From Armatimonadota bacterium (GTDB taxonomy: Bacteria > Vulcanimicrobiota > JACPDT01), in assembly GCA_016183865.1 (NCBI GenBank), contig JACPDT010000084.1, forward strand, positions 1-36,533: a stretch of 36,533 bases of DNA. Direction: 5' to 3'. Shown in pieces: positions 2,234 through 36,533 of the stretch; position 1 is the stretch's first letter, and every line of letters begins with the position of its first letter. Position numbers and translations under genes: made by a program. The notes beneath the pieces are model-generated. The model saw nothing but the letters and a program-made list of their open reading frames with translations. It was not told the origin of the DNA and did not search any database.

Positions 2234-2288
2234 TTACGAAGAACGAAGGGAAGTCATCACATTTACGCAAAAATGGATTCGTCTTCCA

Positions 2289-4339: not shown

Positions 4340-4417
4340 ATTCTCAACTCCTGATCCTTGGTGAATTGCGGATTCGGTAACATCTTGCACAGAGAGAGCC
4401 CGTTTCCTCCCCGAAGA

Positions 4418-6529: not shown

Positions 6530-6558
6530 CCTCATCCTCCTAAATTCAACACCAAAAT

Positions 6559-6578
6559 TTCACCGCAGAGGCACAGAG
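6559..6578. repeat. Dispersed 20-mer repeat, copy 1
   Basis: TTCACCGCAGAGGCACAGAG, 19 of 20 identical to 14623-14642. It overlaps the last codons and stop of the GH65 gene, whose terminal residues TSVPLR are encoded by the repeat. Confidence 0.7.
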
Positions 6579-8872: not shown

Positions 8873-9764
8873 TTTCAGCATCACCAGGGATCTGACCTTC
8901 AAGGAGACCCAGAAAGGCCTGTACTCCCCCACCTATGTGGAGAACCCCGGGAGGGACCCCGTTGGGCTCTTTTCCCACAGACACGTAGGTCGCTCCTTCG
9001 GCCAGGGGGGTCACCATCCTGAAATCGCTTCCTTCGAAGCCTCCTATCGGGCCGAATTCGTCCCCCACGATCAGAATTTGGGAGGGCCTGATGCCTTTTT
9101 CCGCCGCAAGAGTAGTCAGGAGATATTCCATGGAGTCGCTCTTGTCCGTAAGGCCGATTTCCACGTGCTTGACATCTGTGGTGATCTTCCCCGAAAGCCC
9201 CAACTTTCGGGATTTGTCCCCCACCATCCGGATGATCTGCGCGATTCCTTCACTCACGGAATGGTTGTGAAGGCGTTCGGAAACAGCGGAGAGGAGCTCG
9301 CCGATCCGCACCTTGGGCGGGTTCTCCCACTCCGGCAATGGGATCAGGTCCAGTTTTCTCCGGTTCAGGCGATCCGAAGCAATAGAAATTTCGAGGTGAT
9401 ATTTGGAAAGGAGCTCCTCTTTTATCTCTCCAGCGACTTGATCCAGGAGGGCGTTTTCCTCCGGAGTGGCTTCCCGTCTGAACAGGAGGGTTTCACGGCC
9501 CCTTTCATCGTATCCGTAACCCTCGGATCCCCGGTTCGCACAGACGGCGAGCCCCTTTCTGAGAGAGGGGGCGACCTTCGCTCCGAACTGGCGATGGATG
9601 TTTCCGAAATGGGTTCCTGTGACGACGGAAAGAAGTCTTCCCCCGGCGAGGAGCGGTTCCGCTCTGGAAAGAAGCTCGTCAACAGGGTCTTCTCTTCCTG
9701 AGACGGCTGTTCCGTCCCAGTCGAAAACCAGCAGGGAATAGGATTTCAGAAGGCGGGGATTCAT
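8841..9764 (-). CDS. HAD-superfamily phosphatase
   Basis: Motif I FDWDGTAVSG near the N-terminus (nucleophile and acid/base Asp), motif II LSVVTGTHFG, a conserved KSRKLGLSGK lysine region and motif IV LIVGDEFGPIGGFEGSDFRM identify a HAD hydrolase. The long cap between motifs II and III resembles type-C2B phosphatases (sucrose/trehalose-phosphate and phosphomannomutase-like) rather than beta-phosphoglucomutase. It may dephosphorylate a sugar phosphate made in this operon; that is inference from context. ATG at 9764 is preceded by GAGG at 6 nt; an upstream TTG at 9776 overlaps the previous stop. The 3' end overlaps the GH65 start region, which indicates coupled translation. Confidence 0.8.
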   Translation of the reverse strand: MNPRLLKSYSLLVFDWDGTAVSGREDPVDELLSRAEPLLAGGRLLSVVTGTHFGNIHRQFGAKVAPSLRKGLAVCANRGSEGYGYDERGRETLLFRREATPEENALLDQVAGEIKEELLSKYHLEISIASDRLNRRKLDLIPLPEWENPPKVRIGELLSAVSERLHNHSVSEGIAQIIRMVGDKSRKLGLSGKITTDVKHVEIGLTDKSDSMEYLLTTLAAEKGIRPSQILIVGDEFGPIGGFEGSDFRMVTPLAEGATYVSVGKEPNGVPPGVLHIGGGVQAFLGLLEGQIPGDAENEENEHRHEN

Positions 9765-20345: not shown

Positions 20346-21482
20346 ATGGATTACCTTAGTTTTCCCGTAAACGGAGCCTTTGGGAGCATACAGAATCGTG
20401 GATTTCGTGGTCCATACACAGGTGCTCAGCCTTTGGATCCCACCCCGACATACAACACCGGTTACAGCGGAATCTATGGGATCTCTCAAAATCAAGGACT
20501 GAGTGACCCTTACACGTATGTCCGGCCTCCCGATCCCACGCAGACAGACAACGCCGGTTCCAATCCCGTGGAGTCCGTCGTTGTTTCACCGCTTGCGCAA
20601 AAGGGACGGGAGGGATTCACGTACAACGTGGTAGACGCCTATTTGGGAAACCTGCCTCCAGGGGCCTTGCAGAACTCGGAAAAAGCCAGGAACGCCCTTC
20701 TGGACCCAAATATCCCTGAGGGCCGGCGCAAGATCCTCTCAGACGCCTTACGCTCCATCCCGGGGGACCATCTGACCATGCTGAACATGGATGGCATTAA
20801 GATCCAGGTTGAAGACAAGGGAAAACACTACGCCCATTACAAGAAAAAAGACTCCGCCATATATGTCAGCGACCGGATGATGAAAGATCTGGAAGATCCC
20901 GCCAGAAGCAAGGATGCAGAAAGTGTCCTGCGGCACGAGATCGGCCATGCTCTCATTGATTCGATCATACTCAGGGAGGGCGGGGCTGCATCGAGTTTCA
21001 CAAGCTATCTCGACAGTCCTCCCGCCACAGAGCCCGGCGCCCAGCGTCGCGGGGTCGTCGAGCAAGCAACAAGAAGAAACAAGGGACAAATTAGAGTAGA
21101 TGATGCCGTGGAGGAGAAGCTGGCGGACACCTACGCCGATCTTTTCAGCCCTTACTCGGAAGAAAGAAGCCGCCTGGGCAGCAAGGACTCTCAAGAGATC
21201 CAGCTATGGACCCAGACTCTGAGCCGCGGGTACCAGGCCGGAAAAGAGAAGCCCATATCCCCCATTGTCAAGGATTACAAGGAGATTCCCGGCTACAAGC
21301 AGGCAGTTTCCTGGGGGGAGAAGTTCAATCAGCTTGTCGGCCAGGTGCGGAACAACGGTTGGGCCTCATCTCTTGCTCTTGGTGGTTATTTCGAAGACCA
21401 TTACAAGCAGTTACATCAGTATTATCAGAATTATGCGCAATTGGCGGACCTGGACGACGACCCCTGGGGGCACTGGCGTTAG
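20346..21482 (+). CDS. HEIGH metallopeptidase-like protein, paralog 1
   Basis: 378 residues, first of three paralogs. H197-E-I-G-H201 (in LRHEIGHALIDS) and, 55 residues on, E256/E257 in DDAVEEKLADTYADLFSP fit a gluzincin-type zinc site. The layout recalls the anthrax-lethal-factor-like family (HExGH, then E-x-x-A-[DE]), but this is family-level inference. A YAHYKKKDSAIYVS segment precedes the zinc site, as in both paralogs. The N-terminus has no Sec signal. It holds a 32-residue tandem duplication (16-47, 48-79) and then SPLAQ (81-85). The chain ends DLDDDPWGHWR. GGGGGAGGG lies 6 nt before ATG 20346. The end overlaps the convergent oxidoreductase stop by 3 bp. Confidence 0.75.
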   Translation: MDYLSFPVNGAFGSIQNRGFRGPYTGAQPLDPTPTYNTGYSGIYGISQNQGLSDPYTYVRPPDPTQTDNAGSNPVESVVVSPLAQKGREGFTYNVVDAYLGNLPPGALQNSEKARNALLDPNIPEGRRKILSDALRSIPGDHLTMLNMDGIKIQVEDKGKHYAHYKKKDSAIYVSDRMMKDLEDPARSKDAESVLRHEIGHALIDSIILREGGAASSFTSYLDSPPATEPGAQRRGVVEQATRRNKGQIRVDDAVEEKLADTYADLFSPYSEERSRLGSKDSQEIQLWTQTLSRGYQAGKEKPISPIVKDYKEIPGYKQAVSWGEKFNQLVGQVRNNGWASSLALGGYFEDHYKQLHQYYQNYAQLADLDDDPWGHWR

Positions 21483-22180
21483 TTGGGGGTTGAGAAAACG
21501 ATTGTCTGGCTGAAGCGCTCTTCTTTCCAGGGGTCGCCATGACTGTGGTAGCCCCGACTTTCCCAGAAACCGGGGTCATCCTTTTCAACAAACGAGATTT
21601 TGCGGATGAATTTGGCGGACTTCCATGCATAGAGCTTCGGGACCACCAGTCGCGCGGGACCGCCGTGCTCAACAGGAAGCGGTGCTCCATCCAGTTTACA
21701 GGCAAGAATGACATCAGGCGCCAGGGCGTCATCAATCGGGATGTTTGTAGTGTAATCGTCAGAGCAATGGCATACTACAAAACGCGCTCTCTCTCCGGGG
21801 AGAACAATGTCTGCAAGAGTCTTGAATTGCACGCCTCCCCAGCTTACATCGAATTTGCTCCAGGTCGTAACGCAGTGGAAATCGGAGACCTGCTCGATTT
21901 GCGGCAACCGGCTGAATTCCGGCCAGGTCCAGGTCCTTGGGTTGGCGACTTCGCCTTCCACCGAAAAGGACCAGGTTCTCGGATCGAAGGCCGGATGGAT
22001 CCCCAGGTCAAGAACAGGGAAACCTGCGGAAAGGGTTTGGCCTGGCGGCAGACGGTCGCGACCCTTGCGCGGCGGCTTCGCTCCATGCAACGCGACGAAT
22101 TTTTTCTTGGCGGACAGGATCTTCTCTCTCACATGATTGGAATTCGACAAGAGTCCTTTAGGACCGCAACATCCTGACAA
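21479..22180 (-). CDS. Sulfite-oxidase-like molybdopterin oxidoreductase
   Basis: 233 residues of the sulfite-oxidase/YedY (MsrP) molybdopterin fold, in the short soluble family. The molybdenum-ligating Cys is C103 in DFHCVTTWSKFDVSWGGV. Other family features are GFPVLDLGIHPAFDPRTWSF, ADIVLPGERARFVVCHCSDD, YTTNIPIDDAL and HGGPARLVVPKLYAWKSAK. No Tat signal or haem domain is present, so it is probably cytoplasmic. The substrate is unknown. TTG at 22180 is the first start; GTG a few codons downstream is possible. It is convergent with peptidase 1 and occupies the place where, next to the other paralogs, a histidine kinase lies. Confidence 0.85.
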   Translation of the reverse strand: MSGCCGPKGLLSNSNHVREKILSAKKKFVALHGAKPPRKGRDRLPPGQTLSAGFPVLDLGIHPAFDPRTWSFSVEGEVANPRTWTWPEFSRLPQIEQVSDFHCVTTWSKFDVSWGGVQFKTLADIVLPGERARFVVCHCSDDYTTNIPIDDALAPDVILACKLDGAPLPVEHGGPARLVVPKLYAWKSAKFIRKISFVEKDDPGFWESRGYHSHGDPWKEERFSQTIVFSTPN

Positions 22181-22335
22181 ATTCCGGCAGTTCTTCCCGT
22201 TCCAATGCGGCCCAATTGCGCAACTTATTCACAATTTAAGGTGTCCTGCGAGTTCTTTGTCATCGTCAGGTCACCGAGCCGTCAATCACGAGCGGGATAT
22301 CCAAGTACACAACAGAAGTTTTGGAGGGAGCGAAG

Positions 22336-23274
22336 ATGACCTTGGCCGTGGGACGAATGCTCGACTATGCCAGGAACTCAGTCACTGACAAACCTGCCGC
22401 TGCTTCACCGCAACCTGAGGTCGCCGTAACTCAACCTGCTCCACAGCAGGACTCCACTGCGCTTTCACCTCTTGCCAGGAAAGACGCCGAGACCGTTCCA
22501 CAGTCAGAAGGGTTTCCCTGGACTCGGGTTCAAGACCAGATGGAGGCTCTGAAGCGTAACCCGAATTTTGTCGAGAATCTGGGAAAGGGCAGGGAGGCTC
22601 TCCTGGACGACAGCATACCCGAAGATGCAAGAAGGCAAATTGCAGACGCCCTCCGGTCCATTCCGGGAGAGCATCTTGCCTCCTTGAATCAGGACAACAT
22701 AGGAATCAAGATGGAAAAGGATGGGACTGAGTACGCCCATTACCGGAAGAACGACTCCAGCATCTACCTGAGCCCCCAGCTCATCAACGACCTCCTGGAT
22801 CCCTCAAAGAGCAGGGACGCGGAAGCGGCAATCCGCCACGAAATCGGTCACGCCGTCCTGGATTCCTATGCCTTGAGACCCGCGTCCTCCCAGGGTTCCT
22901 TCCGTCAGTACCTTGACAGGGACTCGGACACTCATCACAGGGGATTCTCGGACGATCTGAGTAGAAGAGAAAAGGGGGAACGCAAGGTAAACGACTCACT
23001 TGAGGAGAACCTTGCAGATGTGTACTCATTCTTTTTCAGCCCCTACCAGGAGGACCGCATCAAGCTTGACCAGGAGGATGCCCGGCATTTTTCCAATGAT
23101 CCCTATCAGGTCCGTCTTGACGAGGGCAACATCGGAGCAAGTATGCTGTGGATGGGCAGCCTCTCGTGGGCCTTTTTTCAGAACCCGATAGCGCCCCTGC
23201 CCGGCGACCTTTCGCAGGATCCCTATTACCGCCAAACTGTTCTCGACGACGACCCCTGGGGGCATTGGCGTTAG
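22336..23274 (+). CDS. HEIGH metallopeptidase-like protein, paralog 2
   Basis: About 312 residues. A Pro/Gln-rich linker with SPLAR (44-48) leads to a helical segment (DDSIPEDARRQIADALRSIP), then YAHYRKNDSSIYLS. The zinc motif is H168-E-I-G-H172, and E223/E224 lie in NDSLEENLADVYSFFFSP. The terminus is LDDDPWGHWR. No Sec signal or membrane helix is seen. ATG at 22336 follows GGAGGG at 7-8 nt; a TTG at 22321 coincides with the SD and is not used. The gene is followed 24 bp later by a histidine kinase, so the two form a cassette. The first two thirds align well with both paralogs; the part between the HEIGH helix and the second Glu motif varies most. Confidence 0.75.
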   Translation: MTLAVGRMLDYARNSVTDKPAAASPQPEVAVTQPAPQQDSTALSPLARKDAETVPQSEGFPWTRVQDQMEALKRNPNFVENLGKGREALLDDSIPEDARRQIADALRSIPGEHLASLNQDNIGIKMEKDGTEYAHYRKNDSSIYLSPQLINDLLDPSKSRDAEAAIRHEIGHAVLDSYALRPASSQGSFRQYLDRDSDTHHRGFSDDLSRREKGERKVNDSLEENLADVYSFFFSPYQEDRIKLDQEDARHFSNDPYQVRLDEGNIGASMLWMGSLSWAFFQNPIAPLPGDLSQDPYYRQTVLDDDPWGHWR

Positions 23275-23298
23275 GATGGGAGTTGAGAGAACGATTCC

Positions 23299-25236
23299 GT
23301 GACAGCCTCCAAGAAGGAACAAATATTCGATTTCTGTCTTTTTGCTATATTTCTCGGGGTTTTTGCCCTGTCTCTTCGATCCGTCCGTGTCGCCTCCTGG
23401 GTTGATTTTCTTGTTTTTTTCGTTCTTTTGCTTCTTTTCTACTCGATTCGCGTTCCTCTGCCCGGAGTGGGAATCTATTTTTGTCTGGCTCTCCCCGCCT
23501 TCCTGAGCACCGTGTTGGTCATGGGACCCTCTGCGGCCTGGATTGCGCTCCTGGTCACAATCGCCGATTCGGTGATCCACAGATCTCGTTGGCAGGCCGT
23601 TCTTTTCAATGTCTACCACGATTTTCTTTGCGTCTCTGTTTCCGCCTGGGTTTACTCCTCATGTGGAGGCCAGACGCCCTTGAGCACCCTCCAATTACAC
23701 TCACTTGTCCCCGGATTTGCCGCCAGTGCCACTTTTTTTGTCACCGATTTCGCGCTGACCAACACTCGCCTTGCCGTCGCTCTAGGGAAACCACCCTGGC
23801 GCCGGTTCTATGACATGAAGTTCGCGCTGCTGGACACGGCCCTGTTCCCTCTGGGCTTTCTGGTAGCCTTGTGCTACTCGAGTTGGAGCGTGTCCGGTCT
23901 TTTGCTGGTAGGGCTTCCCCTCTTGCTGGCGGCCCTGATTCTGGGATTCGCCCTGAAAGGCAGCGGCCAAATGGATGAGCTAAGAGTCATTCTGGATACC
24001 GCATCAGAGGTGAATTCCTCCCTGGACCTTGAGCGAATCCTGAAAGCCATCGCCTCAAGAATCGCGCAGGTTCTTTCCCCGGAGGAGTGCCTGATAGCCG
24101 TCTTGCGGGGAGATCAGGAAGTCTGGATGGTTGCGGACGGGAGAGATCGAAAAGAGCCGGTTCTGTATCTTCCCGTACAGGATTTGGCCGTAGCTAGAGA
24201 AGAGCTCAATCGGCTCCAGGAAGAGACGGCAGGGCAGGACTCCTCTTCGTTCCCTTTTCTGGACTCCCAGTTCTATGCGGGAAAGGCACCGAAGGTCTTT
24301 TTTCCTGTGAAAGGGGAGGGGGAGACTGCAGGGCTGATTGTTCGTGTAACGCGAAGCCTCTTCTTCGAGGAGCACCGGGAACTTATCGCCATCTTATCCC
24401 AGCAGGGCTCAAGCGCCATCAAGAATGCGAAGATGTATACCGATCTGAAAGCGGCGCAAGCCCAGATCATACAATCGGGCAAGATGGCGGCACTGGGGCA
24501 ATTGGCTGCAGGGGTTGCCCACGAGGTCAACAATCCCCTCGGGGCCATTATGACTTCGGTTGATCTTATTTCAGATGATGACACCGATCCGGAGCTACGC
24601 AGAGAAGGGGTCCAGCTTATCAAACAGGGGATCACCCGATGCAAGGAGATTGTGAATCACCTTCTCCAGTATGCCCATCAGGGGGGTCCTGATCAGGATT
24701 CCCCGGCCGACCAGATTGTGGAAGCAAAGCAGGTTGTTGAGAAAACCCTGGTACTTTTTCTGGAGTCTTTTCGGAGATTGGGCATAGAGGTCATGACGGA
24801 ATACGATTCACACAGCCTGGTGCGGGGAAGCCCCCAGGAGCTCAATCAGTTGCTGACCAACCTTCTCTTGAATGCGAAAGACGCCATAGTGGAACGTCGG
24901 GAAAAGGAGGGGTCCGGTTTCCCGAAGGATAAGGCGAAGATTTCCATAAAGACCCGTTCAGATGGAGTATACGCATACATGGAGGTTCAGGATAATGGGA
25001 TCGGGATCCCCCCAAAGACTTTGCCGAAGATTTTCGATCCCTTTTTTACCACAAAGGAAGTTGGAAAAGGCTCGGGGCTTGGCCTTGCCAATGCCCTTTC
25101 CATTGCAAAGAAATACGGCGGAGACATAAGAGTGTCGTCAAAGGCCGGTGATACGCTCTTCTCCGCAAAGTTTCCTGAGATCAAAAGAAAGGAAAGAATT
25201 CACACAGTCGCAACATCTGAGTACCCGCGGTCATGA
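23299..25236 (+). CDS. Membrane sensor histidine kinase with GAF domain, copy 1
   Basis: 645 residues, GTG start. Residues about 10-215 form roughly eight membrane helices with the MASE-like signature PLPGVGIYFCLALP and VMGPSAAWIALLVTIADS. A cytoplasmic GAF domain follows (about 230-385, starting LDTASEVNSSLDLERILKAI). The HisKA segment contains the phospho-acceptor H408 in LAAGVAHEVNNPLGAI. The ATPase domain has N-box LLLNAKDAI, G1 VQDNGIGIP, F-box FDPFFTTKEVG and G2 KGSGLGLA. All catalytic boxes are intact. No receiver is attached; the cognate is probably the receiver/HD-GYP protein at 28417. It follows peptidase 2 by 24 bp and ends at a strong terminator. Confidence 0.92.
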   Translation: MTASKKEQIFDFCLFAIFLGVFALSLRSVRVASWVDFLVFFVLLLLFYSIRVPLPGVGIYFCLALPAFLSTVLVMGPSAAWIALLVTIADSVIHRSRWQAVLFNVYHDFLCVSVSAWVYSSCGGQTPLSTLQLHSLVPGFAASATFFVTDFALTNTRLAVALGKPPWRRFYDMKFALLDTALFPLGFLVALCYSSWSVSGLLLVGLPLLLAALILGFALKGSGQMDELRVILDTASEVNSSLDLERILKAIASRIAQVLSPEECLIAVLRGDQEVWMVADGRDRKEPVLYLPVQDLAVAREELNRLQEETAGQDSSSFPFLDSQFYAGKAPKVFFPVKGEGETAGLIVRVTRSLFFEEHRELIAILSQQGSSAIKNAKMYTDLKAAQAQIIQSGKMAALGQLAAGVAHEVNNPLGAIMTSVDLISDDDTDPELRREGVQLIKQGITRCKEIVNHLLQYAHQGGPDQDSPADQIVEAKQVVEKTLVLFLESFRRLGIEVMTEYDSHSLVRGSPQELNQLLTNLLLNAKDAIVERREKEGSGFPKDKAKISIKTRSDGVYAYMEVQDNGIGIPPKTLPKIFDPFFTTKEVGKGSGLGLANALSIAKKYGGDIRVSSKAGDTLFSAKFPEIKRKERIHTVATSEYPRS

Positions 25237-25320
25237 GGGCGTAAGAGACGAGTCATGGCCCGGCAAGATAAGGGAGGTATAAACAGAACAGGTTCCATCT
25301 TCCTCACCCCTGTTTGAGCC

Positions 25321-25347
25321 GGCCCGATTCACTCGGGCCAATTTTTT
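25321..25347 (+). terminator. Intrinsic terminator after histidine kinase 1
   Basis: GGCCCGA-TTCAC-TCGGGCC is a perfect 7-bp GC-rich stem followed by AATTTTTT, 84 bp after the kinase stop. The left arm plus flanking bases (CCGGCCCGATTC, 25319-25330) can instead pair with GAATCGGGCCGG at 25353-25364, so two hairpins compete. Confidence 0.8.
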
Positions 25348-25417
25348 CCCTGGAATCGGGCCGGTTGTATTACGAAAAGGGAAGGAAAAGATGGGGAGTT
25401 GTTCACATTTCGGCAAC

Positions 25418-25430
25418 GATTGTGACAATC
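25418..25430. promoter_or_regulatory. 13-bp perfect palindrome upstream of peptidase 3
   Basis: GATTGT-G-ACAATC, 85 bp before the ATG of peptidase 3 and between the terminator and that gene. It is a plausible dimeric operator. I could not place a confident -35/-10 pair in 25365-25500. Confidence 0.4.
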
Positions 25431-25514
25431 CAGTGACCGGAACGTCATGAAGCTGTGTGATAGGATCATGAAGGGAAGGGTCCTGCCTTTCAGTCGCAAA
25501 GGAGGGTTCAGGTG

Positions 25515-26513
25515 ATGGGAGAACCGGTGGAAAAAATCGGCAAAGCCAAGGAGAAACAGCCTCAAGAGGTCATGAACTCCGGCTTCCAGGCAATCGGCAA
25601 TGAACAAAAAGTGCCTCCGGAAACGCAACCGGAGGATTTGACCGCTTTTTCCCCTCTAGTCCAGGATGGTGGGCCTCAATGGGGAGTGCCGGCGCGCGAT
25701 GATGAGGTATTCCCCTGGGGCGACAACTCCGCAATGACCGGTTTGGAGAAGCTCAAGCAGTGGTCTGCGAGAAAGAAAGAGGATCGAGCCTTTACGGATA
25801 ATCCCGAAGCTGTGAAGGCTTCGTTGATGAATGACGATATCCCACCGGACCAGAAGCAACTGATCTCAAACGCTCTGGATCCCATACCCGTGGATCACCT
25901 GGCTGACTTGAGTCATGACGGCATAAAGATCCAGGTGGCGGAAAACAGTGATCAATACGCGCATTATAGAAAAAAGGATTCCACCATTTACCTGAGCCAA
26001 CAACTGATGGACGATCTGTCCGATCCCGCCAAAAAGGATCAGGCGGAAACCGTCATCAGGCACGAGATCGGTCATGCCTTTCTTGACTCCTATGTGCTGG
26101 GAAAGGGGAACTTTCGCAACGGCTTTCTGAATTACGTTTCCAAGGGACCTGGCGGCGCTCCGGATTCTCCCCCGGAGACTCAGTACGGGGATTATGGTTT
26201 CCAGGAAACGGGCGATCTTCTGGAGAATGATAAACCCCTGCCTGACAGCAAGCCCGGGGAGATTCACGTGAATGATGAGCGGGAAGAGCAATTCGCCGAT
26301 GCCTATGCGACCTTTTTCAGCCCTGACGGTCATGGCAAGGGACGGTTGCTGCGAAGCGGAGACACACAGGCTTTTGCCCTGTTTGTAGGGAGCAAGTCCG
26401 ACAAACAGGTCAGAATCGGAAATCCCTTCGCCAAACCTCTTGACGTCACACAGGATCCCTACTACAACCAGGCTACGTCCGATGACGATCCCTGGGGGGT
26501 ATGGGCCAGGTAG
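25515..26513 (+). CDS. HEIGH metallopeptidase-like protein, paralog 3
   Basis: About 332 residues. The N-terminal linker is rich in Glu, Lys and Gln and carries SPLVQ (46-50). A helical segment (NDDIPPDQKQLISNALDPIP) leads to YAHYRKKDSTIYLS, then H183-E-I-G-H187 in IRHEIGHAFLDSYVLG, then E257/E258 in NDEREEQFADAYATFFSP. The terminus is SDDDPWGVWAR, a near-copy of the other two. No Sec signal is seen. ATG at 25515 follows GGAGGG at 8 nt; a GTG lies one codon before. Kinase copy 2 begins 24 bp after the stop, exactly the spacing seen after paralog 2. Proteolytic activity is inferred from the zinc motifs only. Confidence 0.75.
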   Translation: MGEPVEKIGKAKEKQPQEVMNSGFQAIGNEQKVPPETQPEDLTAFSPLVQDGGPQWGVPARDDEVFPWGDNSAMTGLEKLKQWSARKKEDRAFTDNPEAVKASLMNDDIPPDQKQLISNALDPIPVDHLADLSHDGIKIQVAENSDQYAHYRKKDSTIYLSQQLMDDLSDPAKKDQAETVIRHEIGHAFLDSYVLGKGNFRNGFLNYVSKGPGGAPDSPPETQYGDYGFQETGDLLENDKPLPDSKPGEIHVNDEREEQFADAYATFFSPDGHGKGRLLRSGDTQAFALFVGSKSDKQVRIGNPFAKPLDVTQDPYYNQATSDDDPWGVWAR

Positions 26514-26537
26514 GGGGAGGTTCCCAAAAGTCTTTCT

Positions 26538-28427
26538 GTGACCCGATCAAGGCATGAGAAACGGTTTGCTCTCTGTATTTCCATTCTGACGCTTCCGGGG
26601 CTCTTTCTTTCCATTCATGCGATTCAGGCGTCCAATCGGATGGACGTCTTCTTCTTTGCGGTTCTTCTTTTTCTTTTTAGCTTCATAGAAGTGCCCTTGC
26701 CCAGGATAGGGATCTATTTTCGCCTCACAGCCGCCATCCTCTTCGGCGCCGTTCTCGTTCTGGGGCCGGCGGCGGCCTGGATCGCCCTTCTCGTCTCACT
26801 GGCCAATTCGGGAATCCGCAAATATCGCTGGTATGCGGCCTTGTTCAATGGTTCCCATGATTTTTTGTGTGTCGGCGCCTCTGCCTGGGTGTATCTGGCC
26901 TCAGGGGGACGAATTCCCGTGGGGGAGGTGGGATTCCATTCCCTCTTACCCGCACTTGCCGCCGCCGGGGTCCTCTTCCTTACCGACTATGTCTTGACCA
27001 ATTTTGCGGTGTCCGTTTCCATGGGAAAGCCGCCATGGCACCCCCTTTACGACATACGGGCCGCTTTGCTGGACGCGGGCCTGTTCCCTCTCGGGATACT
27101 GGTTTCTCTCTGCTATTCTTACTGGGGTGTATCGTCGCTTCTTCTCGTGGGATTTCCGATTCTCCTGACATCCGCCGTTCTGGGCTATGCCCTCAGGGGA
27201 ACCGGGCAACTTGATGAGCTGAAGGTGGTTCTGGACACCGCCTCCCAGATCAACTCTTCCCTGGATTTGGAGGAGATTCTGCAGGCCATCGTTTCCCGTA
27301 TCTCAAAAGTCGTGATGCCTGAGGAATGTCTTATTGCTCTCTTGCGTTCCGGACCGGATGAATGGATGATCCTGGATGCCCGGAAATGTGGAGGGCCTGC
27401 TCAGCGCATTCCGGCCAAAGAGCATGCCAGAGCGGAATTGGATCGGGTTCAGGAAGGGGCTGTGATGACGGATGGCCTGACGTTTCCTGTACTGGATTCC
27501 CTTTTCTTTCCCGGGCGTTTCCCCAAAATGGTCTTCCCTGTTCGTACAGAGGGGCGGATTGCGGGTCTGATCGTTCTTGTCACCCAGAGCTATTTTCTGG
27601 AGGAGCATAGAAAGCTTGTGGATATTTTCGCACAGCAGAGCGGAAGTGCCATCAAAAACGCAAGAATGTACTCCGACCTCAAGGGGGCCCAGGCCCGGAT
27701 GATCGAGTCCAGCAAGATGGCTGCCCTGGGTCAATTGGCTGCAGGGGTGGCCCATGAGGTCAACAATCCCCTTGCGGCGATTCTTACTTCCGTTCAGCTC
27801 ATGTCGGGCCCGCAAACGGATTCTGAGCTTCGCCAGGAAGGAGTCCGACTGATCAAGGAAGGGATCGCCCGGTGCAAGAAGATCGTGAACCAGCTCCTCC
27901 AGTATGCACATGGGGGCGCAACGAACAGAGATCTCGGGGTTCACAGGGAAGTGGAGGTCAGCCAGGTAGTGGAAGACACGTTGATTCTCTTCCAGGAATC
28001 TTTCAGAAAAGTTGGAATTCAGGTCTCATCCGACTATCATCCACCATGCCTTGTGCGGGCCAATCCACAGGATCTCAGTCAACTGTTCACAAATCTCCTG
28101 CTGAATGCCCGGGATGCCGTCGAGGAGCGTCAAGAAAAGGGAGAGATCCCCTCAGGAGCGCTCATTTCCATAAAAACCGGCTCCGATGATGGGTACTCCT
28201 TTATCGAGATCCTGGACAATGGCGTGGGAATTCAGTCCGAGGTTCTGCCCAGAATCTTTGATCCCTTTTTCACCACAAAGGAAGTGGGAAAGGGCTCCGG
28301 ACTCGGCCTTGCCAATGCCATGTCCATTGCAAGGAAGTACGGAGGAGACATTCAGGTATCATCGAAAATTGGGGAAACCCTCTTTTCCGTGAAGTTTCCA
28401 GACGGGAGAAACGAAATTGTCCAGTGA
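26538..28427 (+). CDS. Membrane sensor histidine kinase with GAF domain, copy 2
   Basis: 629 residues, GTG start, paralogous to copy 1 along its whole length. About eight membrane helices (PLPRIGIYFRLTAAILFGAV, LGPAAAWIALLVSLANSGI), then a GAF domain (LDTASQINSSLDLEEILQAI). H406 lies in LAAGVAHEVNNPLAAI, followed by N-box LLLNARDAV, G1 LDNGVGIQ, FDPFFTTKEVG and GKGSGLGLANAM. The membrane domain is conserved between copies in overall pattern but varies in the loops, which would fit different ligands. The stop TGA lies inside the first codons of the receiver/HD-GYP gene (11-bp overlap), so kinase and regulator are translationally coupled and are the likely cognate pair. Confidence 0.92.
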   Translation: MTRSRHEKRFALCISILTLPGLFLSIHAIQASNRMDVFFFAVLLFLFSFIEVPLPRIGIYFRLTAAILFGAVLVLGPAAAWIALLVSLANSGIRKYRWYAALFNGSHDFLCVGASAWVYLASGGRIPVGEVGFHSLLPALAAAGVLFLTDYVLTNFAVSVSMGKPPWHPLYDIRAALLDAGLFPLGILVSLCYSYWGVSSLLLVGFPILLTSAVLGYALRGTGQLDELKVVLDTASQINSSLDLEEILQAIVSRISKVVMPEECLIALLRSGPDEWMILDARKCGGPAQRIPAKEHARAELDRVQEGAVMTDGLTFPVLDSLFFPGRFPKMVFPVRTEGRIAGLIVLVTQSYFLEEHRKLVDIFAQQSGSAIKNARMYSDLKGAQARMIESSKMAALGQLAAGVAHEVNNPLAAILTSVQLMSGPQTDSELRQEGVRLIKEGIARCKKIVNQLLQYAHGGATNRDLGVHREVEVSQVVEDTLILFQESFRKVGIQVSSDYHPPCLVRANPQDLSQLFTNLLLNARDAVEERQEKGEIPSGALISIKTGSDDGYSFIEILDNGVGIQSEVLPRIFDPFFTTKEVGKGSGLGLANAMSIARKYGGDIQVSSKIGETLFSVKFPDGRNEIVQ

Positions 28428-30060
28428 GAAGATCCTTGTCGTAGAAGACGACCCCCTGGTGAGGGAGGCATTGAAACTCACTCTCAAACAGGCCGGATAC
28501 GATGTCTCCACCGCTTCCGACGGACGGGAGGCCATTTCCCTTGCTGAGAAGGAATCCTTCGATCTTTTCATCATGGATGTGCGAATGCCCGGGATAGACG
28601 GCATCGAGTCTCTTTCGCGGATGAAGGAATCTCAGCCTGAAGCCCAGAGTATTGTCATGACCGGCTATGCGGATCGGGACGCCCCCGTGAAGGCTCTCCG
28701 CCTGGGGGCGGCGGACTACTTCTACAAACCCTTTGACCCGGAGGAGCTTCTCCGGAGTGTCCGCCATCATTTGGAGAAGTGCCGCCTGACCCGCAATGAG
28801 CGGGTTGTCTCAAAAAGGCTCCTCCAATCCAACCTCCAAACTCTCAAACAGGTCGCCCTTCTTGTGGAGGACCGGAACCGCTGGTTCCGCGGCCATTCCC
28901 GAAGGACCGCGGAATGGGCGGTTCGGGTTGCCAGGAAACTGGAGCTGGATCCGGAGCGGATCGAGCTCCTTGAGACGGCGGCACTCCTTCACGATATCGG
29001 ACAGATCTATGTTCAGGAAGAGATCCTGGGGAAACCCGGAGAGCTTTCCCCGGAGGAGCGGGAAGCCGTTCGCGCCCATCCTGTTCTGGCCCGTGAGTTT
29101 CTGGGCGCTGTTTCGGAGTTTCGCGAGATTCTGTACATCATTCATCACCATCACGAATGGTGGAACGGCAAGGGGTATCCATCGGGCCTTTCGGGTGAGG
29201 AGATTCCTATCGAATCACGGATCCTGTCCGTTTGCGAGGCCTATGACGCTCTGATCAGTCCCCGTCCCCACAGAGGCGCCTTTTCCACGGATGAGGCCTT
29301 TGAGGTTCTCAGGACCCATTCCGGCACCCAGTTTGACGGAGATATCGTAAAAACCCTCATTTCCCGCGTAAACCATCCGGAGGATGGGTCGGATGAGGGC
29401 GCCCTTCCCGAGGATCGGGATACCCTGGGCACATTGGAGCTTCTGGCGAGGGCGTATGAGCAGGTGGACAGCGATCTTGCCGTGGAGGCATTTCAGCGTC
29501 TTTCCGCCCTTTCGGAGTCCTCTTCCGGTCGTCGTCCCCTCCTTCGGAGTCTCCTGAGCCTGGCTTCTCTGTATCGTCGTCAGGGGAATCTCCTGAAAGC
29601 CCGTACCTGTGTGGAGCTTCTTTTGGAGAAATCCCGGGAGCAGATGGATTTTTTGTATCGCGGCGAGGGCTTGCTTTTGGATGGCGCGATTTTTCTTTCA
29701 GAGCAGCGTTATGAGGAGGCTTCCGCGAGCTTTCAGGAGGCATCCCGTCATTTTTCTCACCTGGACCGCCGTGCGGAGAAGGCGAAGGCCGATCTCTTTC
29801 TGGCCCGTTCGGGCCAGGCTTCCGGCTCGGAGTTTTTGTCCCATCTTCGGAGCTCTTTTTCGGTTCTGGAGTCTCTGAGCAGTGTGGAGCATGAGGATAT
29901 TCTCTTAGGGGAGCGAGACTTGTTGTCTCCTGTGGTCCTGTATGGATTGAGAGATCAGGAGCTTCGTCCTGTGGCTTCCGGGATTTGCCTGGGTTGGGGA
30001 GCAGGGCTTCCAGATTCTTCTCAATCAACAGATCATCGAGGATGGGGAATGGAAGAGTAA
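28417..30060 (+). CDS. Response regulator with HD-GYP domain and helical repeat region
   Basis: 547 residues from TTG at 28417, the start supported by the homologous MASSEKIL at 35946. Residues 1-120 are a receiver domain with phospho-acceptor D54 (DLFIMDVRMPGIDG), conserved T (SIVMTGYADRD) and K (YFYKPFDP). Residues about 150-320 form an HD-GYP domain: HSRRTAEWAVRVARKL, ETAALLHDIGQ, HHHHEWWNGKGYPSGL. The usual HDIGK Lys is Gln; the metal-binding His/Asp and the GYP loop remain, so c-di-GMP hydrolysis is possible. Residues 340-520 are TPR-like helices. The last about 35 residues (after ASGICLG) look like out-of-frame translation, because the following activator module continues in the +1 frame. 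Confidence 0.85.
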   Translation: MSSEKILVVEDDPLVREALKLTLKQAGYDVSTASDGREAISLAEKESFDLFIMDVRMPGIDGIESLSRMKESQPEAQSIVMTGYADRDAPVKALRLGAADYFYKPFDPEELLRSVRHHLEKCRLTRNERVVSKRLLQSNLQTLKQVALLVEDRNRWFRGHSRRTAEWAVRVARKLELDPERIELLETAALLHDIGQIYVQEEILGKPGELSPEEREAVRAHPVLAREFLGAVSEFREILYIIHHHHEWWNGKGYPSGLSGEEIPIESRILSVCEAYDALISPRPHRGAFSTDEAFEVLRTHSGTQFDGDIVKTLISRVNHPEDGSDEGALPEDRDTLGTLELLARAYEQVDSDLAVEAFQRLSALSESSSGRRPLLRSLLSLASLYRRQGNLLKARTCVELLLEKSREQMDFLYRGEGLLLDGAIFLSEQRYEEASASFQEASRHFSHLDRRAEKAKADLFLARSGQASGSEFLSHLRSSFSVLESLSSVEHEDILLGERDLLSPVVLYGLRDQELRPVASGICLGWGAGLPDSSQSTDHRGWGMEE

Positions 30061-30079
30061 GAAGGCCAGACTCTTTCTC

Positions 30080-30736
30080 GTGTATCTCTTGATTCACAGA
30101 GGTCGTGCAGTGGGAGAAGACAAGATCATGGAGACCTTCTGGCCGGGAGACCCTGAAAAGGCGCAGAACAGCCTGTATTCCACCCTCCATCGGCTCAGGA
30201 AAGCCCTTGAGAAAAAGGGCGACGGCAGCCTCGCCGACCCTGTCCTTCATCAAGGCAAGGGTTATGGTTTCAACACAGATATCCAGCACTCTTTCGATGT
30301 GGAAGAATTTGAGAGCTCTTATGAAAAGGGAGCGCGTCTCTGGGAGAGCAGGCAGAGGGGCGATGCAGCAGCTCATTTCCAGCGGGCTGACCGGCTCTAT
30401 GGAGGTGAGTTCCTGGAGGGCGTCTACGAAGATTGGGCCCTGGCCGTGAGGGAACGCCTGGAGCGCAAGTACCTGGATGTTCTGGTCTATCTGGCTCAAT
30501 TCTATAACGAAGATGGACGTTTCGATCTCGGAATCAGCTATGCCGAGAGGGCAGTGGATATGGAGCGATGCGAGGAGCGGGCCCATGCAGAGCTCATGAA
30601 CGGCTATTTCCGCTCAGGAAAACGCGATCTCGCAGTACGCCAATATCACACCCTCTGCAAAATCCTGAAGGACCACCTGGGTCTTTCCCCATCCCCTCCC
30701 ACGGTCCGCCTTCACCTTCAGATTACGCAATCCTGA
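30080..30736 (+). CDS. SARP/BTAD-type transcriptional activator module, probably the frameshifted 3' part of the preceding gene
   Basis: The reading frame contains the C-terminal half of an OmpR-like winged helix (LLIHRGRAVGEDKIMETFWP, NSLYSTLHRLRKALEKKG, GYGFNTDI). A bacterial transcriptional activation domain follows (FLEGVYEDWALAVRERLERK, AERAVDMERCEERAHAELM, CKILKDHLGLSPSP). GTG at 30080 is the first start in this frame, but the open frame upstream (from about 30009) already reads FQILLNQQII, EDGEW, KSKKARLF, the expected first strands and helix of the same winged helix. No start codon lies there. The domain therefore most likely belonged to the receiver/HD-GYP gene and was separated by a one-base change near 29995-30015. 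A programmed shift is also conceivable. Confidence 0.75.
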   Translation: MYLLIHRGRAVGEDKIMETFWPGDPEKAQNSLYSTLHRLRKALEKKGDGSLADPVLHQGKGYGFNTDIQHSFDVEEFESSYEKGARLWESRQRGDAAAHFQRADRLYGGEFLEGVYEDWALAVRERLERKYLDVLVYLAQFYNEDGRFDLGISYAERAVDMERCEERAHAELMNGYFRSGKRDLAVRQYHTLCKILKDHLGLSPSPPTVRLHLQITQS

Positions 30737-31103: not shown

Positions 31104-31132
31104 TTGACAAAAATATGGATTCATTATATACT
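31104..31132 (+). promoter_or_regulatory. Near-consensus promoter of DUF4143 ATPase 2, predicted leaderless
   Basis: TTGACA (31104-31109), 17-bp spacer, TATACT (31127-31132). Seven bases after the -10 box is the A of ATG at 31139. Confidence 0.75.
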
Positions 31133-31138
31133 GTGGAT

Positions 31139-32266
31139 ATGATAAAAAGGTTCTTCAGCAGGCTTGACACATATCTGATGCCTCAAAAAGTACTCGTCAT
31201 ATATGGACCAAGACGGGTGGGCAAAACGACGCTATTGAACGCCTTCTTGAAAAGTACCACACTCCGATATAAATTGGATTCCGGCGACAATATCCGGGTA
31301 CAGCAACTTCTCGGTTCCCGAGATTTTTCTCAGATTCTCCCTTATGCGGAAGGGTACGAGCTCATCGCCATAGACGAGGCACAACAAGTTCAGGGGATCG
31401 GCGCCGGCCTCAAGATCATAGTGGACCACGCCCCAAATATAAAGATCATTGCCACAGGTTCGTCCTCTTTCGATTTGGCCCACCAGGTCGGAGAGCCGCT
31501 GACGGGAAGAAAATTTACGATAACCCTTTATCCTATTGCTCAGCTTGAGTTGCTGGACAGGTACAACAGGTTCGAACTCTCACAGAAACTGGAGGATTTT
31601 CTCGTCTTTGGGTCCTATCCGGAGATCGTTACAGCCAAAAGTCGCAAAGAAAAAATTATGTTGTTGCAGGAAATCGCGGAATCTTATCTTCTGAAAGATA
31701 TCCTGGTCCTGGACAAGGTAAAAGGGTCGAAAGTCTTATTCGATCTCTTAAAACTTCTGGCGTTTCAAATCGGTAGTGAGGTCTCCTACAGCGAACTGGC
31801 GAACAGTTTGCGCATTGATGTGAAAACAGTGGCTCGCTATCTGGACCTCCTAACCAAGACCTTTGTCATCACACCCTTGCACGGATTCAGTCGCAATCTG
31901 CGTTCGGAGATTACCCGGAAACACAAGTACTTCTTCATTGATAACGGAGTGCGTAATGCCGTGATTTCCCAGTTCAATCCGCTGGAAGACAGGAATGACG
32001 GCGGACAGCTTTTCGAGAATTTCGTTTTCATCGAGCGACTAAAAAAACGTACATACCACGGTATCCTGGGCAACGCATATTTTTGGAGAACCTATGAACA
32101 ACAGGAAATTGACCTGGTGGAAGAAGGCGAGGGCAAGCTGCACGGATATGAATGCAAGTGGTCCACAAGAAGAAGAGCAACCCCGCCCAAACTATGGCGA
32201 ACAGCCTATCCGAAGGCGGGATTCTCTGCGATAACCCCTGAGAATTATCTGGAATTCATTACATAG
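31139..32266 (+). CDS. AAA ATPase with DUF4143-type C-terminal domain, second copy
   Basis: About 375 residues. Walker A is YGPRRVGKTTLL (22-33), Walker B YELIAIDEAQ, sensor-like IIATGSSSFDLA, and the C-terminal segment FWRTYEQQEIDLVEEGEG resembles the restriction-endonuclease-like end of DUF4143 proteins. It is a distant paralog of 397-1701 (same architecture, modest similarity) and is about 60 residues shorter. The start at 31139 is chosen because the promoter overlaps an earlier in-frame ATG at 31115; no SD is seen, as expected for a leaderless mRNA. Base composition is visibly more AT-rich than the Ada-AlkA/MGMT genes downstream, consistent with separate origin. Its role is unknown. Confidence 0.85.
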   Translation: MIKRFFSRLDTYLMPQKVLVIYGPRRVGKTTLLNAFLKSTTLRYKLDSGDNIRVQQLLGSRDFSQILPYAEGYELIAIDEAQQVQGIGAGLKIIVDHAPNIKIIATGSSSFDLAHQVGEPLTGRKFTITLYPIAQLELLDRYNRFELSQKLEDFLVFGSYPEIVTAKSRKEKIMLLQEIAESYLLKDILVLDKVKGSKVLFDLLKLLAFQIGSEVSYSELANSLRIDVKTVARYLDLLTKTFVITPLHGFSRNLRSEITRKHKYFFIDNGVRNAVISQFNPLEDRNDGGQLFENFVFIERLKKRTYHGILGNAYFWRTYEQQEIDLVEEGEGKLHGYECKWSTRRRATPPKLWRTAYPKAGFSAITPENYLEFIT

Positions 32267-33966: not shown

Positions 33967-34610
33967 CCACCTGGTACACCAGCGTTGACAGTCCTTTTCA
34001 GTCACTGCTCCTGACTTCCGATGGAGCGGCTCTGACCGGCCTTTACATGGTTGCACACGAACCTGGCCCGGCGATGGGCGATGACTGGGTCCACGACGAG
34101 GCCGCTCCTTTTGCGGAGGCCAGGCGACAACTTGCGGCCTATTTCGCCGGCGCCTTGAAAGAATTCGACCTGCCGCTCGCCATGAAGGGCGCCAGCTTCC
34201 ATCAACGGGTGTGGGACGAGCTGAAGCGAATTCCTTACGGCAGCATTATCACTTACGCGGAACTGGCGAGGCGAGTCGGGAATCCCAGGGCCTCGCGTGC
34301 GGTGGGACAGGCCAACGGACGCAATCCCATCTCAATCATCGTGCCCTGCCACAGGGTCATCGGAGCAACGGGCCGACTGATCGGATATGGAGGCGGGCTC
34401 CCGCAGAAGCAGGCCCTGCTGAACCTCGAGGCGTCGGTGCTTGCCTCACCATCTGCCGTACAATTCCAAATAATGCGCCGTCGGTATCTGAGGTGCGACC
34501 TGAGGCCCGGCGGCCCCCACAACCCCTCTGTGAGGGCCGCCAGAAAACCTCCTTCCCTCATCAACTACCCGGGCCAGTTACCGTATTCCACATTCCAGAC
34601 ACTGACCTGA
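33963..34610 (+). CDS. ogt: Methylated-DNA--protein-cysteine methyltransferase (Ogt type), C-terminally extended
   Basis: The first about 160 residues are a complete O6-alkylguanine transferase: FHQRVWDELKRIPYGSIITY, AVGQANGRNPISIIVPCHRV (acceptor Cys in PCHRV) and IGYGGGLPQKQALLNLE. The protein removes alkyl groups from O6 of guanine in a suicidal reaction. It is coupled to AlkA by ATGA. Normal family members end soon after ALLNLE; here the frame continues about 50 residues through the hairpin and direct repeat copy B and into the antisense of the RTX-like gene (46-bp overlap). The natural stop seems to have been lost at the insert boundary. The tail may be unstructured. Confidence 0.88.
   Translation: MTTWYTSVDSPFQSLLLTSDGAALTGLYMVAHEPGPAMGDDWVHDEAAPFAEARRQLAAYFAGALKEFDLPLAMKGASFHQRVWDELKRIPYGSIITYAELARRVGNPRASRAVGQANGRNPISIIVPCHRVIGATGRLIGYGGGLPQKQALLNLEASVLASPSAVQFQIMRRRYLRCDLRPGGPHNPSVRAARKPPSLINYPGQLPYSTFQTLT
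34509..34541. terminator. GC-rich hairpin between the ogt-type and RTX-like genes
   Basis: GGCGGCCCCCAC pairs with GTGAGGGCCGCC, 11 of 12 bp, 9-nt loop. It lies 24 bp after the RTX-like gene's stop on the minus strand and inside the ogt reading frame. No T-run follows on either strand. Confidence 0.55.
34523..34596. repeat. 74-bp direct repeat, copy B
   Basis: Identical to 30796-30869. It contains the last codons of the RTX-like gene (minus strand), its stop and the right arm of the downstream hairpin. Confidence 0.9.
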
Positions 34611-35797
34611 TCCCACCAGTTATCCCACGGTGTCCTCGTTTGATTGACCAGGGCTTCATCCTGCCCTGCCCCGCCATCTACCTGTATCTTGTCTCTTCCG
34701 GGTCCGCCCTCTGCACGGATCCGGTCACTTCCTCCACCCCCTTGAATGGCAATATCATCATTTCCATGACGTCCATCCACTGAGATGCTGTTTTCCCAGC
34801 CTCCGTACACGCGGAGCCGGTCGTCTCCCGGGCCGCCGAGGATGTTAAATGTGTCTCTGTAACCTCCCCATGCGTCTATCGTATCACGTCCGCCTTCGAA
34901 ATGTAGCTCTCCATTCAGGTCGTATCTGTTATTTCCCCAGCTTCCCCACGTGCGGACTTGATCATCCCCCTTCCCGCCGCTGAGTCCGATCGTGTTGCTC
35001 CACCCTCCCCATGCGTCCATTTTGTCGTTCCCTCCATCTCCTGACATGCCGATCTTGTTGCGCCATCCACCCATGGAAGTCACAGAATCGTTGCCTTCTC
35101 CTCCCCTCATGCCGACAAGGCTGTCTGTTCCTCCAACACTCCATATGTTGTCGTCACCGACTCCTCCATGCAGGCGGATCATGTTCATCTGACCTCCGTT
35201 GGCAACAATCGTATCATTGCCGGAATCTCCGTTGACGGTTACGTTGTTCAGAAACCCGGCGTTTACGAAAAGACGATCATCTCCATCCCCTCCGTTCACG
35301 ACCACCCTGTCGCCGCCCGAACCGTTCATTACAATCTGGTCATTTCCGCCGTTGCCGTTTACGGTGAGGGAGCCTTCAAGGCTCATCAAACCCTGATACA
35401 AGAGATTTCCGTTTCCGTCCCTGGTTTCCACCCATCTTCCGCTCTCATCGTTCCTTTCGCTGATTCTCAAATCATTGTCCCCATCGCCGAAATCGAGAAT
35501 CTTGTTTCCGTATTGATCGCTCGTCATCCGATACTCTTCGCCTGTATTTGGATTTTTGTAATGCTCCACAGTGTTTCCATTAGCATCTTGCACCACATTA
35601 TATGGGGCAGGGGACGCCGGGTACATCTGTTGCGCCAGGGGGGAAATGTTTACACCATCCTGACCCTTCCCTCTCGTGGATCCCGCCTGTATTGACTCGT
35701 CCTGGCCCACTCTCTCCACCACATTTTTCCCTGCGACTCCCCCTGTATATGGAGCAATCGCTCGCACATCCACAGGTTTTACTTGAGAAATGTCCAT
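34565..35797 (-). CDS. RTX-like calcium-binding beta-roll protein with SPLAQ linker
   Basis: 410 residues. Residues 1-60 are disordered, without a Sec signal, and contain VNISPLAQQM (SPLAQ at 52-56). Residues about 60-125 are beta-rich with D-x-N-G turns (QDANGNTVEHYKNPNTGEEY). From about 125 to 375, roughly a dozen G-G-x-G-[ND]-D-x-[IVL] nonapeptide-type turns recur at 20-26-residue spacing (NGGDGDDRL, SGGKGDDQV, LGGPGDDRL). Between them lie aromatic GGW-x-N-x-I segments, unusual for classic RTX proteins. The tail is Trp-rich (TPWDNWWDQVSVW, then NVEYGNWPG). GAGGAGG lies 7 nt before ATG 35797. It is divergent from a receiver/HD-GYP gene. A calcium-stabilised exported or surface protein is likely. 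Confidence 0.85.
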   Translation of the reverse strand: MDISQVKPVDVRAIAPYTGGVAGKNVVERVGQDESIQAGSTRGKGQDGVNISPLAQQMYPASPAPYNVVQDANGNTVEHYKNPNTGEEYRMTSDQYGNKILDFGDGDNDLRISERNDESGRWVETRDGNGNLLYQGLMSLEGSLTVNGNGGNDQIVMNGSGGDRVVVNGGDGDDRLFVNAGFLNNVTVNGDSGNDTIVANGGQMNMIRLHGGVGDDNIWSVGGTDSLVGMRGGEGNDSVTSMGGWRNKIGMSGDGGNDKMDAWGGWSNTIGLSGGKGDDQVRTWGSWGNNRYDLNGELHFEGGRDTIDAWGGYRDTFNILGGPGDDRLRVYGGWENSISVDGRHGNDDIAIQGGGGSDRIRAEGGPGRDKIQVDGGAGQDEALVNQTRTPWDNWWDQVSVWNVEYGNWPG

Positions 35798-35945: not shown

Positions 35946-36533
35946 ATGGCATCCAGTGAAAAAATTCTCATAGTTGAAGATGACTCCCTGATGCGGGAGG
36001 CCCTGAAATTGGCCATTCGCAAGGCAGGGTATGACGTCTCTGTCGCCTCCGACGGATTTGAGGCCATCTCCCTCGCTGAAAAGGAGTCTTTTGATCTGAT
36101 CATTATTGATGTGAGGATGCCGGGGATGGATGGCATCGAGTCCCTTTCGCAGATGAAGGAAAGCCAGCCCGAGGCCCAGAGTATTGTAATCACCGGATAT
36201 GCGGACAGGGATGCGCCGGTAAATGCCATGCGCCTGGGGGCCTGCGATTATTTCTACAAACCCTTTCAAACGGATGAGCTTTTGCGGAGCATCCGCCACC
36301 ACCTGGACAGGTGCCGACAGATCAGGAGCGAGCGGGCCGTATCGAATCGCTTGCGACAATCCTATCTCGAGACACTGAAGCTCATTGCCGCGCTTCTTGA
36401 GGAAAGAAATCCTTATTTTCACGGCCATTCACGAAGGACTGCGGAGTGGGCAGTCAGGGTCGCAAGGAAGCTCAAGCTTGACAAGGAGCGGATCGAGCTT
36501 CTGGAGACGGCGGCCCTACTTCACGATATCGGA
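35946..36533 (+). CDS. Response regulator with HD-GYP domain, second copy, cut by window edge
   Basis: ATG at 35946 opens a frame that runs to the end of the window (196 codons). Receiver domain: KILIVEDDSLMREALKLAI, phospho-acceptor in FDLIIIDVRMPGMDG, SIVITGYADRDAP, YFYKPF. The HD-GYP start follows: HSRRTAEWAVRVARKLKLD and ETAALLHDIG. It is a close paralog of 28417-30060, with long runs of identity in both domains. The C-terminal half, including any TPR or BTAD region, lies outside. GGGTGA about 3-5 nt before the ATG is a weak SD. Divergent orientation to the RTX-like gene suggests it controls that gene. Confidence 0.88.
   Translation, partial: MASSEKILIVEDDSLMREALKLAIRKAGYDVSVASDGFEAISLAEKESFDLIIIDVRMPGMDGIESLSQMKESQPEAQSIVITGYADRDAPVNAMRLGACDYFYKPFQTDELLRSIRHHLDRCRQIRSERAVSNRLRQSYLETLKLIAALLEERNPYFHGHSRRTAEWAVRVARKLKLDKERIELLETAALLHDIG

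What the first reader, a model, noticed from the sequence alone, without database searches (positions are those of the whole stretch)
20346..30736. Candidate new system: duplicated cassettes of HEIGH metallopeptidase + membrane histidine kinase, ending in a receiver/HD-GYP/BTAD regulator
Three paralogous putative zinc peptidases and two paralogous 8-TM GAF histidine kinases alternate, with 24 bp between peptidase and kinase in both complete cassettes. The last kinase overlaps a receiver/HD-GYP gene by 11 bp. The peptidases have HEIGH and a downstream E-E-x-x-A-D motif, no Sec signal, and shared linker and C-terminal motifs. Seen: order, spacing, motifs. Known: each domain family. Inference: each kinase senses something linked to its partner peptidase, or controls it, and the module has expanded by cassette duplication. 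I know of no described system with this gene set.
Basis: partly seen in the sequence, partly recalled or inferred. Interest (0 to 1): 0.85.

Follow-up and report, generated by a model that had tools for sequence, protein, structure and literature searches.

The report
Protease genes paired with membrane sensors
In an uncultured bacterium, genes for protease-like proteins that share a peculiar aromatic, arginine-ended tail sit directly in front of genes for membrane sensors again and again, which suggests an undescribed way for a cell to sense, or respond to, a protein that it makes itself.

Summary
The genes, spacing and motifs are real, with corrections. P1 has no kinase, so there are two complete cassettes, [P2-HK1] and [P3-HK2-regulator], with a terminator-like hairpin between them. 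The regulator and BTAD ORFs are one gene split by a frameshift. By weak sequence hits, the E-x-x-A-D motif and Foldseek, the peptidases resemble the M34 family (anthrax lethal factor C-domain, PPEP-1/Zmp1).

Pairing recurs. In the window's own genome 6 of 11 scorable M34-like genes lie directly upstream of a membrane sensor (p about 4e-8), ending in a histidine kinase (4) or HD-GYP domain (2). Two other genomes of the phylum have M34-like + membrane HD-GYP pairs. In the same slot other sensors have clostripain (C11) proteins, disordered or LysM proteins, or 46-95-residue peptides.

In the own genome many of these unrelated partners share an aromatic tail ending in Arg (DDDPWGHWR, SGGPFWWWR, GDDGWYYYR, GGFWR); partners 7/17 against 5/461 other ORFs. 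One partner has lost the first His of HExxH yet keeps tail and sensor.

Best reading: a leaderless partner read by its own membrane sensor, ComX-ComP-like, with the protease as one interchangeable body. The pairing is shown; export, ligand role and signalling direction are inferred. A sorting tail on secreted proteases is the close rival.

The parts
20346..21482 (+). P1, M34-like metallopeptidase (378 aa), SPLAQ motif, tail DDDPWGHWR; no sensor adjacent
20571..20600 (+). P1 motif ESVVVSPLAQ
20934..20948 (+). P1 HEIGH motif
21453..21479 (+). P1 C-terminal tail DDDPWGHWR
21479..22180 (-). Convergent Oxidored_molyb (PF00174) gene between P1 and P2; not thought part of the module
22321..23274 (+). 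P2, M34-like metallopeptidase (317 aa as listed; likely ATG start at 22336), motif DSTALSPLAR, tail DDDPWGHWR
22837..22851 (+). P2 HEIGH motif
23299..25236 (+). HK1: multi-TM, weak GAF, HisKA, HATPase_c; 24 bp after P2
25321..25339 (+). Terminator-like hairpin GGCCCGATTCACTCGGGCC followed by a T run, between cassettes
25512..26513 (+). P3, M34-like metallopeptidase (333 aa; likely ATG start at 25515), motif DLTAFSPLVQ, tail DDDPWGVWAR
26061..26075 (+). P3 HEIGH motif
26481..26510 (+). P3 C-terminal tail DDDPWGVWAR
26538..28427 (+). HK2: multi-TM, GAF, HisKA, HATPase_c; 24 bp after P3, overlaps the regulator by 11 bp
28417..30060 (+). Regulator, first part: receiver, HD-GYP (HD_5), TPR-like
29960..30080 (+). 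Frameshift zone that splits the regulator; the wHTH N-terminal half reads in another frame
30080..30736 (+). Regulator, second part: winged helix (Trans_reg_C) and BTAD
34565..35797 (-). Possibly related protein: DGVNISPLAQ motif, RTX-like Gly-Asp repeats (by eye), Trp-rich tail
35946..36533 (+). Second receiver/HD-GYP regulator, cut by the contig end, divergent from 34565-35797

Best explanation
The locus holds two co-oriented partner-sensor cassettes. The partner (P2, P3) has no Sec signal, a disordered N-terminal part with a [DE]xVxxSPLAQ-type motif, an M34-like zinc peptidase domain, and an aromatic, Arg-ended C-terminal tail. The next gene is a multi-pass membrane sensor (TM-GAF-HisKA-HATPase). 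I propose that the partner is moved out of, or to the face of, the membrane by a non-Sec route, and that its tail or a fragment of it is recognised by the membrane domain of its own sensor, as ComX is by ComP. The peptidase domain is one interchangeable body and may mature the partner or act on surface proteins. HK2 would then phosphorylate the adjoining receiver/HD-GYP/TPR/BTAD regulator, lowering cyclic di-GMP and changing transcription. Shown: gene pairing, recurrence, shared tail and motif, domain families. Inferred: export, ligand role, direction of signalling, output.
For: Six of 11 scorable M34-like genes of this genome are directly upstream of a membrane sensor; background at most 95/4410, P = 4e-8, or 1e-6 counting the window pairs once. 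M34-like + membrane HD-GYP pairs recur with 11-17 bp gaps in G005 and G009, about 40% GC against 52-56%. The slot is filled by unrelated proteins: C11 (C213 8 bp; C318 208 bp; C211 526 bp), LysM proteins, disordered proteins and 46-95-residue ERIAP peptides; ERIAP peptides also lie upstream of a membrane HD-GYP in G005 and G009. Tail (at least 2 aromatics in the last 9 residues and final Arg): 7/17 partners against 5/461 other ORFs of 150 aa or more, P = 1.3e-8; all nine peptides aligned and the tenth, from C321, end aromatic plus Arg. C192 reads EELGH for HExxH but keeps tail and sensor. Relatives with the SPL-type motif carry LysM or RTX-like repeats, domains normally outside the cytoplasm. 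ComX, 52-73 aa with Trp near its C-terminus, lies before the multi-TM kinase ComP (PMC4008528).
Against: P1 and C335 carry the tail with no adjacent sensor, and P1, P2 and C335 have identical tails, as a general sorting tag would. Several sensors have no recognisable partner, and tails in G005/G009 are of another type (VPVWGG, GGWGGG). C55, C220, C211 and C318 partners lack the Arg-ended tail. No experiment or co-variation test shows tail-sensor recognition. The export route is unidentified. Counts come from one fragmented genome; the loci were chosen because they neighbour sensors, proteases or regulators, and the tail rule was set after seeing the tails.
Confidence: 0.4

Rival explanations
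1. Sorting-tail model: M34-like and C11 proteins and their relatives are secreted by a common leaderless route that reads the SPLAQ motif and/or aromatic-Arg tail; the adjoining sensor only controls production of its own protease, for example in a cyclic di-GMP controlled attachment/release switch like that served by PPEP-1.
For: Tail and motif also occur on proteins without an adjacent sensor (P1, C335, window 34565-35797). PPEP-1/Zmp1 is a secreted protease of this kind used for release from the sessile state (PMC11460543; PMC3841139). Outputs here are HD-GYP or kinase plus HD-GYP regulator.
Against: Short peptides with no catalytic body hold the same slot and tail; a degenerate-site partner keeps the pairing; tails differ between cassettes more than a single export signal usually would.
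Confidence: 0.35
2. The peptidase is cytoplasmic and acts on its own sensor or on the regulator, switching signalling by proteolysis.
For: No Sec signal; 24 bp coupling; a PPEP homologue without signal peptide, CD1597, is presumed intracellular (PMC11460543).
Against: LysM and RTX-like relatives and short peptides in the same class; a partner with a degenerate active site.
Confidence: 0.12
3. The proximity is operon hitch-hiking: one ancestral pair duplicated, without functional link.
For: P2-HK1 and P3-HK2 are clearly paralogous cassettes; 5 of 11 M34-like genes and most C11 genes are unpaired.
Against: Different M34 subfamilies and the unrelated C11 family pair with sensors having different output domains, and pairs recur in another family of the phylum.
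Confidence: 0.06

Closest known systems
M34 peptidases: PPEP-1/Zmp1 and the anthrax lethal factor C-terminal domain (Pfam ATLF PF07737)
   Same: HExxH followed by an E-x-x-A-[DE] motif; best PDB sequence hits (weak) and best fold hits are this family; known members are extracellular
   Different: Below the Pfam cut-off, no Sec signal, SPLAQ motif, aromatic-Arg tail, own N-terminal part, paired with membrane sensors
ComX-ComP-ComA quorum sensing (ComQXPA)
   Same: Leaderless precursor with an aromatic residue near its C-terminus, gene directly before a multi-TM histidine kinase, followed by a response regulator (PMC4008528)
   Different: Partners here can be full proteases; sensor can end in HD-GYP; regulator is HD-GYP/BTAD, not the ComA type; no ComQ seen in the window; kinase is HisKA (PF00512), not PF07730
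Clostripain family C11 (PF03415)
   Same: The window's genome has 32 matches; C213 and C318 copies directly precede membrane HD-GYP proteins
   Different: Most are unpaired; no C11 in the window itself
Receiver-HD-GYP response regulators (for example RpfG) and BTAD/SARP regulators
   Same: Receiver plus HD-GYP, and wHTH plus BTAD, above Pfam cut-offs
   Different: Both halves with a TPR-like middle in one protein in paralogues; RpfC/RpfG sense a fatty acid (own knowledge)

Membership tests
M34 (ATLF/PPEP) peptidase | HExxH zinc motif | tested here: met
   Invariant in P1-P3; degenerate in C192 only
M34 (ATLF/PPEP) peptidase | Downstream Glu in an E-x-x-A-[DE] helix | tested here: met
   EE[KNQ].AD at spacing 51-70 in P1-P3 and 29-60 in most paralogues
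M34 (ATLF/PPEP) peptidase | M34 fold | tested here: inconclusive
   Foldseek best hits lethal factor, Certhrax, PPEP-1/-2, prob up to 1.00 but E 2e-3; model mean pLDDT 51, residues 101-190 at 82-94
M34 (ATLF/PPEP) peptidase | Pfam ATLF gathering score | tested here: not met
   P3 12.1 and C83 25.3 bits against 27.4
M34 (ATLF/PPEP) peptidase | Substrate specificity of the family | not testable with these tools
   needs enzyme assay
Membrane HisKA histidine kinase | HisKA and HATPase_c above cut-off, membrane N-terminus | tested here: met
   Both kinases; hydropathy
HD-GYP/BTAD response regulator | Receiver, HD-GYP, BTAD above cut-off | tested here: met
   but split by a frameshift
ComQXPA quorum sensing | Trp near the precursor C-terminus, gene directly before a multi-TM kinase | tested here: met
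   definition from PMC4008528
ComQXPA quorum sensing | Precursor of about 52-73 residues | tested here: not met
   P2 and P3 are 317 and 333 aa; only the ERIAP peptides of other loci are of that size
ComQXPA quorum sensing | ComQ isoprenyl transferase next to the precursor | tested here: not met
   no such gene beside the cassettes; rest of the genome not searched
ComQXPA quorum sensing | Secreted modified peptide activates the kinase | not testable with these tools
   needs experiment

The most novel reading that the evidence does not exclude
A new class of self-sensing: leaderless partners with interchangeable bodies (M34-like metalloprotease, clostripain-type protease, LysM protein, short peptide), often sharing an aromatic-Arg tail, each read by a dedicated membrane sensor whose output module (histidine kinase or cyclic di-GMP phosphodiesterase) is interchangeable too.
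Probability: 0.25. Interest if true: 0.85.

Novelty: new variant of a known kind. Interest (0 to 1): 0.62.

Why it matters
If right, proteases related to PPEP-1 and lethal factor are part of a bacterial signalling pair and not only secreted enzymes, and a phylum with few studied members has a large set of protein or peptide signals that gene finders miss because the precursors are short or disordered. It also gives a rule for finding them: the gene directly before a multi-TM GAF/HK or HD-GYP sensor, with an aromatic tail ending in Arg. Even under the rival sorting-tail reading, the tail would mark an undescribed leaderless export class.

Tried and rejected
Genome-contig scans with the peptidase alignment and with the kinase N-terminal pair found no confirmed relative; a third query had no stretch conserved enough to search with. 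The strict peptidase profile found only one weak, different protein (L029) in the phylum. Non-flagellar type III secretion: four FHIPEP matches; two are in flagellar-type gene sets and two are partial, so no injectisome was seen. M48 membership: P3 just passes the Pfam cut-off (21.1 against 20.3) but P1 and P2 do not, and fold and PDB hits go to M34. Structure of the kinase membrane domain: unusable, pLDDT 37. Riboswitch or other known RNA in the window: none at gathering score. Known families for the ERIAP peptides: only a weak RiPP-leader hit, E 0.047. The DNA pattern scan for DDDPWG found only the five known peptidases. The organism could not be named with these tools.

Full report
Observation. 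P1 is solitary: it faces a convergent Oxidored_molyb gene. A terminator-like hairpin at 25321-25339 lies between HK1 and P3, so the likely units are P2-HK1 and P3-HK2-regulator. The RR and BTAD ORFs lie in different frames, and the N-terminal half of the winged helix reads only in the second frame; intact paralogues are single proteins of about 795-834 aa. One more such regulator begins at 35946 and runs off the contig.

What the peptidases are. Pfam gives only sub-threshold ATLF hits and one marginal M48 hit for P3. A profile of six paralogues against PDB sequences returns only PPEP-1/Zmp1 and lethal factor, at E 0.26-2. The AlphaFold model of P3 is confident only in the core (residues 101-190, block means 82-94), and Foldseek ranks lethal factor, Certhrax and PPEP-1/-2 on top. 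The HExxH plus E-x-x-A-D pattern agrees. I call them M34-like, not proven M34 members.

The pairing is general. The genome has 13 matches to an M34-like profile. Leaving out one at a contig end and one weak match, 6 of 11 stand directly upstream of a membrane sensor: P2, P3, C83 and C55 before kinases, C213 and C192 before membrane HD-GYP proteins. With at most 95 signalling genes in about 4410 genes (one per kb, assumed) this is P = 4e-8, or 1e-6 if the two window pairs count once. In G005 and G009, of another family and lower GC, an M34-like gene precedes a membrane HD-GYP protein by 11 and 17 bp. The more distant M34-like hits that I looked at in the phylum are not paired.

The slot takes other proteins. 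In C213 the order is M34-like, HD-GYP sensor, clostripain (C11), HD-GYP sensor. C318 and C211 have C11 genes 208 and 526 bp before sensors, although most of the 32 C11 matches are unpaired. LysM proteins with DTVSLSP motifs precede kinases in G005 and G009. Peptides of about 46-95 residues with a VEExExRIAP core precede the sensors of C331, C210 and C264; homologues lie directly before a membrane HD-GYP protein in G005 and G009.

The tail. Many own-genome partners end in an aromatic stretch and Arg: DDDPWGHWR, DDDPWGVWAR, SGPWGGWYR, SGGPWGSSWR, SGGPFWWWR, KGPWNLYR, DDLVWRKRWR, GDDGWYYYR, GGFWR, GWYWR. Under a fixed rule, 12 of 478 ORFs of at least 150 aa qualify: 7 of 17 partners and 5 of 461 others, P = 1.3e-8. 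Three of the 7 are close M34 paralogues, the rule was set after seeing the tails, and the loci were not a random sample, so the number is indicative. The C192 partner has lost the first His of HExxH but keeps tail and sensor, as expected if catalysis is not what is conserved in the slot.

The SPL motif. A motif of the type [DE]xVxxSPLAQ is in 7 of 14 M34-like proteins (from some of which it was derived) and in 10 of 437 other ORFs. It also occurs in LysM proteins and in window 34565-35797, which has RTX-like repeats and a Trp-rich tail. LysM and RTX-type repeats usually work outside the cytoplasm (own knowledge), so I infer leaderless export of this class. No route was identified.

Mechanism. 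The nearest working analogue is ComX-ComP: a 52-73 aa precursor with a Trp near its C-terminus, encoded before a multi-TM kinase (PMC4008528). It is an analogy, not membership: no ComQ was seen and the bodies differ. The nearest functional analogue of the enzymes is PPEP-1, secreted to release C. difficile from its sessile state (PMC11460543). The HD-GYP outputs here would lower cyclic di-GMP, so a release or lifestyle switch is a plausible purpose; this step is inference. The sorting-tail model explains P1, C335 and the identical tails better; the ligand model explains the peptides, the degenerate peptidase and the diversity of tails better.

Limits. One fragmented genome (353 contigs, 96% complete, 3% contamination) carries most of the evidence. 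No genome of the same family was found among those searched. No experiment was possible.

Noticed in passing
genome G000, 32 places: Very large expansion of clostripain (C11) peptidases, mostly not beside sensors; one M34-like + C11 tandem on C262 (L191 2196-5327).
   Followed up: partly
window 34565-35797 (-): RTX-like repeat protein with the SPLAQ motif and a Trp-rich tail, divergent from a second receiver/HD-GYP regulator at 35946.
   Followed up: partly
window 29960-30080: Frameshift splits the regulator; C211 (L026) shows a similar RR/BTAD split. Could be assembly error or real.
   Followed up: partly
L020 (C331) 650-9300: Tandem array of three related membrane sensors with seven ERIAP peptides ending in FWR, LWR or YWR.
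   Followed up: partly
L150 5549-6598 (-): M34-like partner whose HExxH reads EELGH, still directly before a membrane HD-GYP protein.
   Followed up: no
G000 C261 and C127: Two partial FlhA C-terminal (FHIPEP) matches apart from the two flagellar gene sets.
   Followed up: no
window 397-1701 (-) and 31115-32266 (+): Two AAA_14/DUF4143 ATPases flank the region.
   Followed up: no
33 of 98 same-phylum genomes searched: M34-like matches, mostly weak and, where looked at, mostly without an adjacent sensor.
   Followed up: partly
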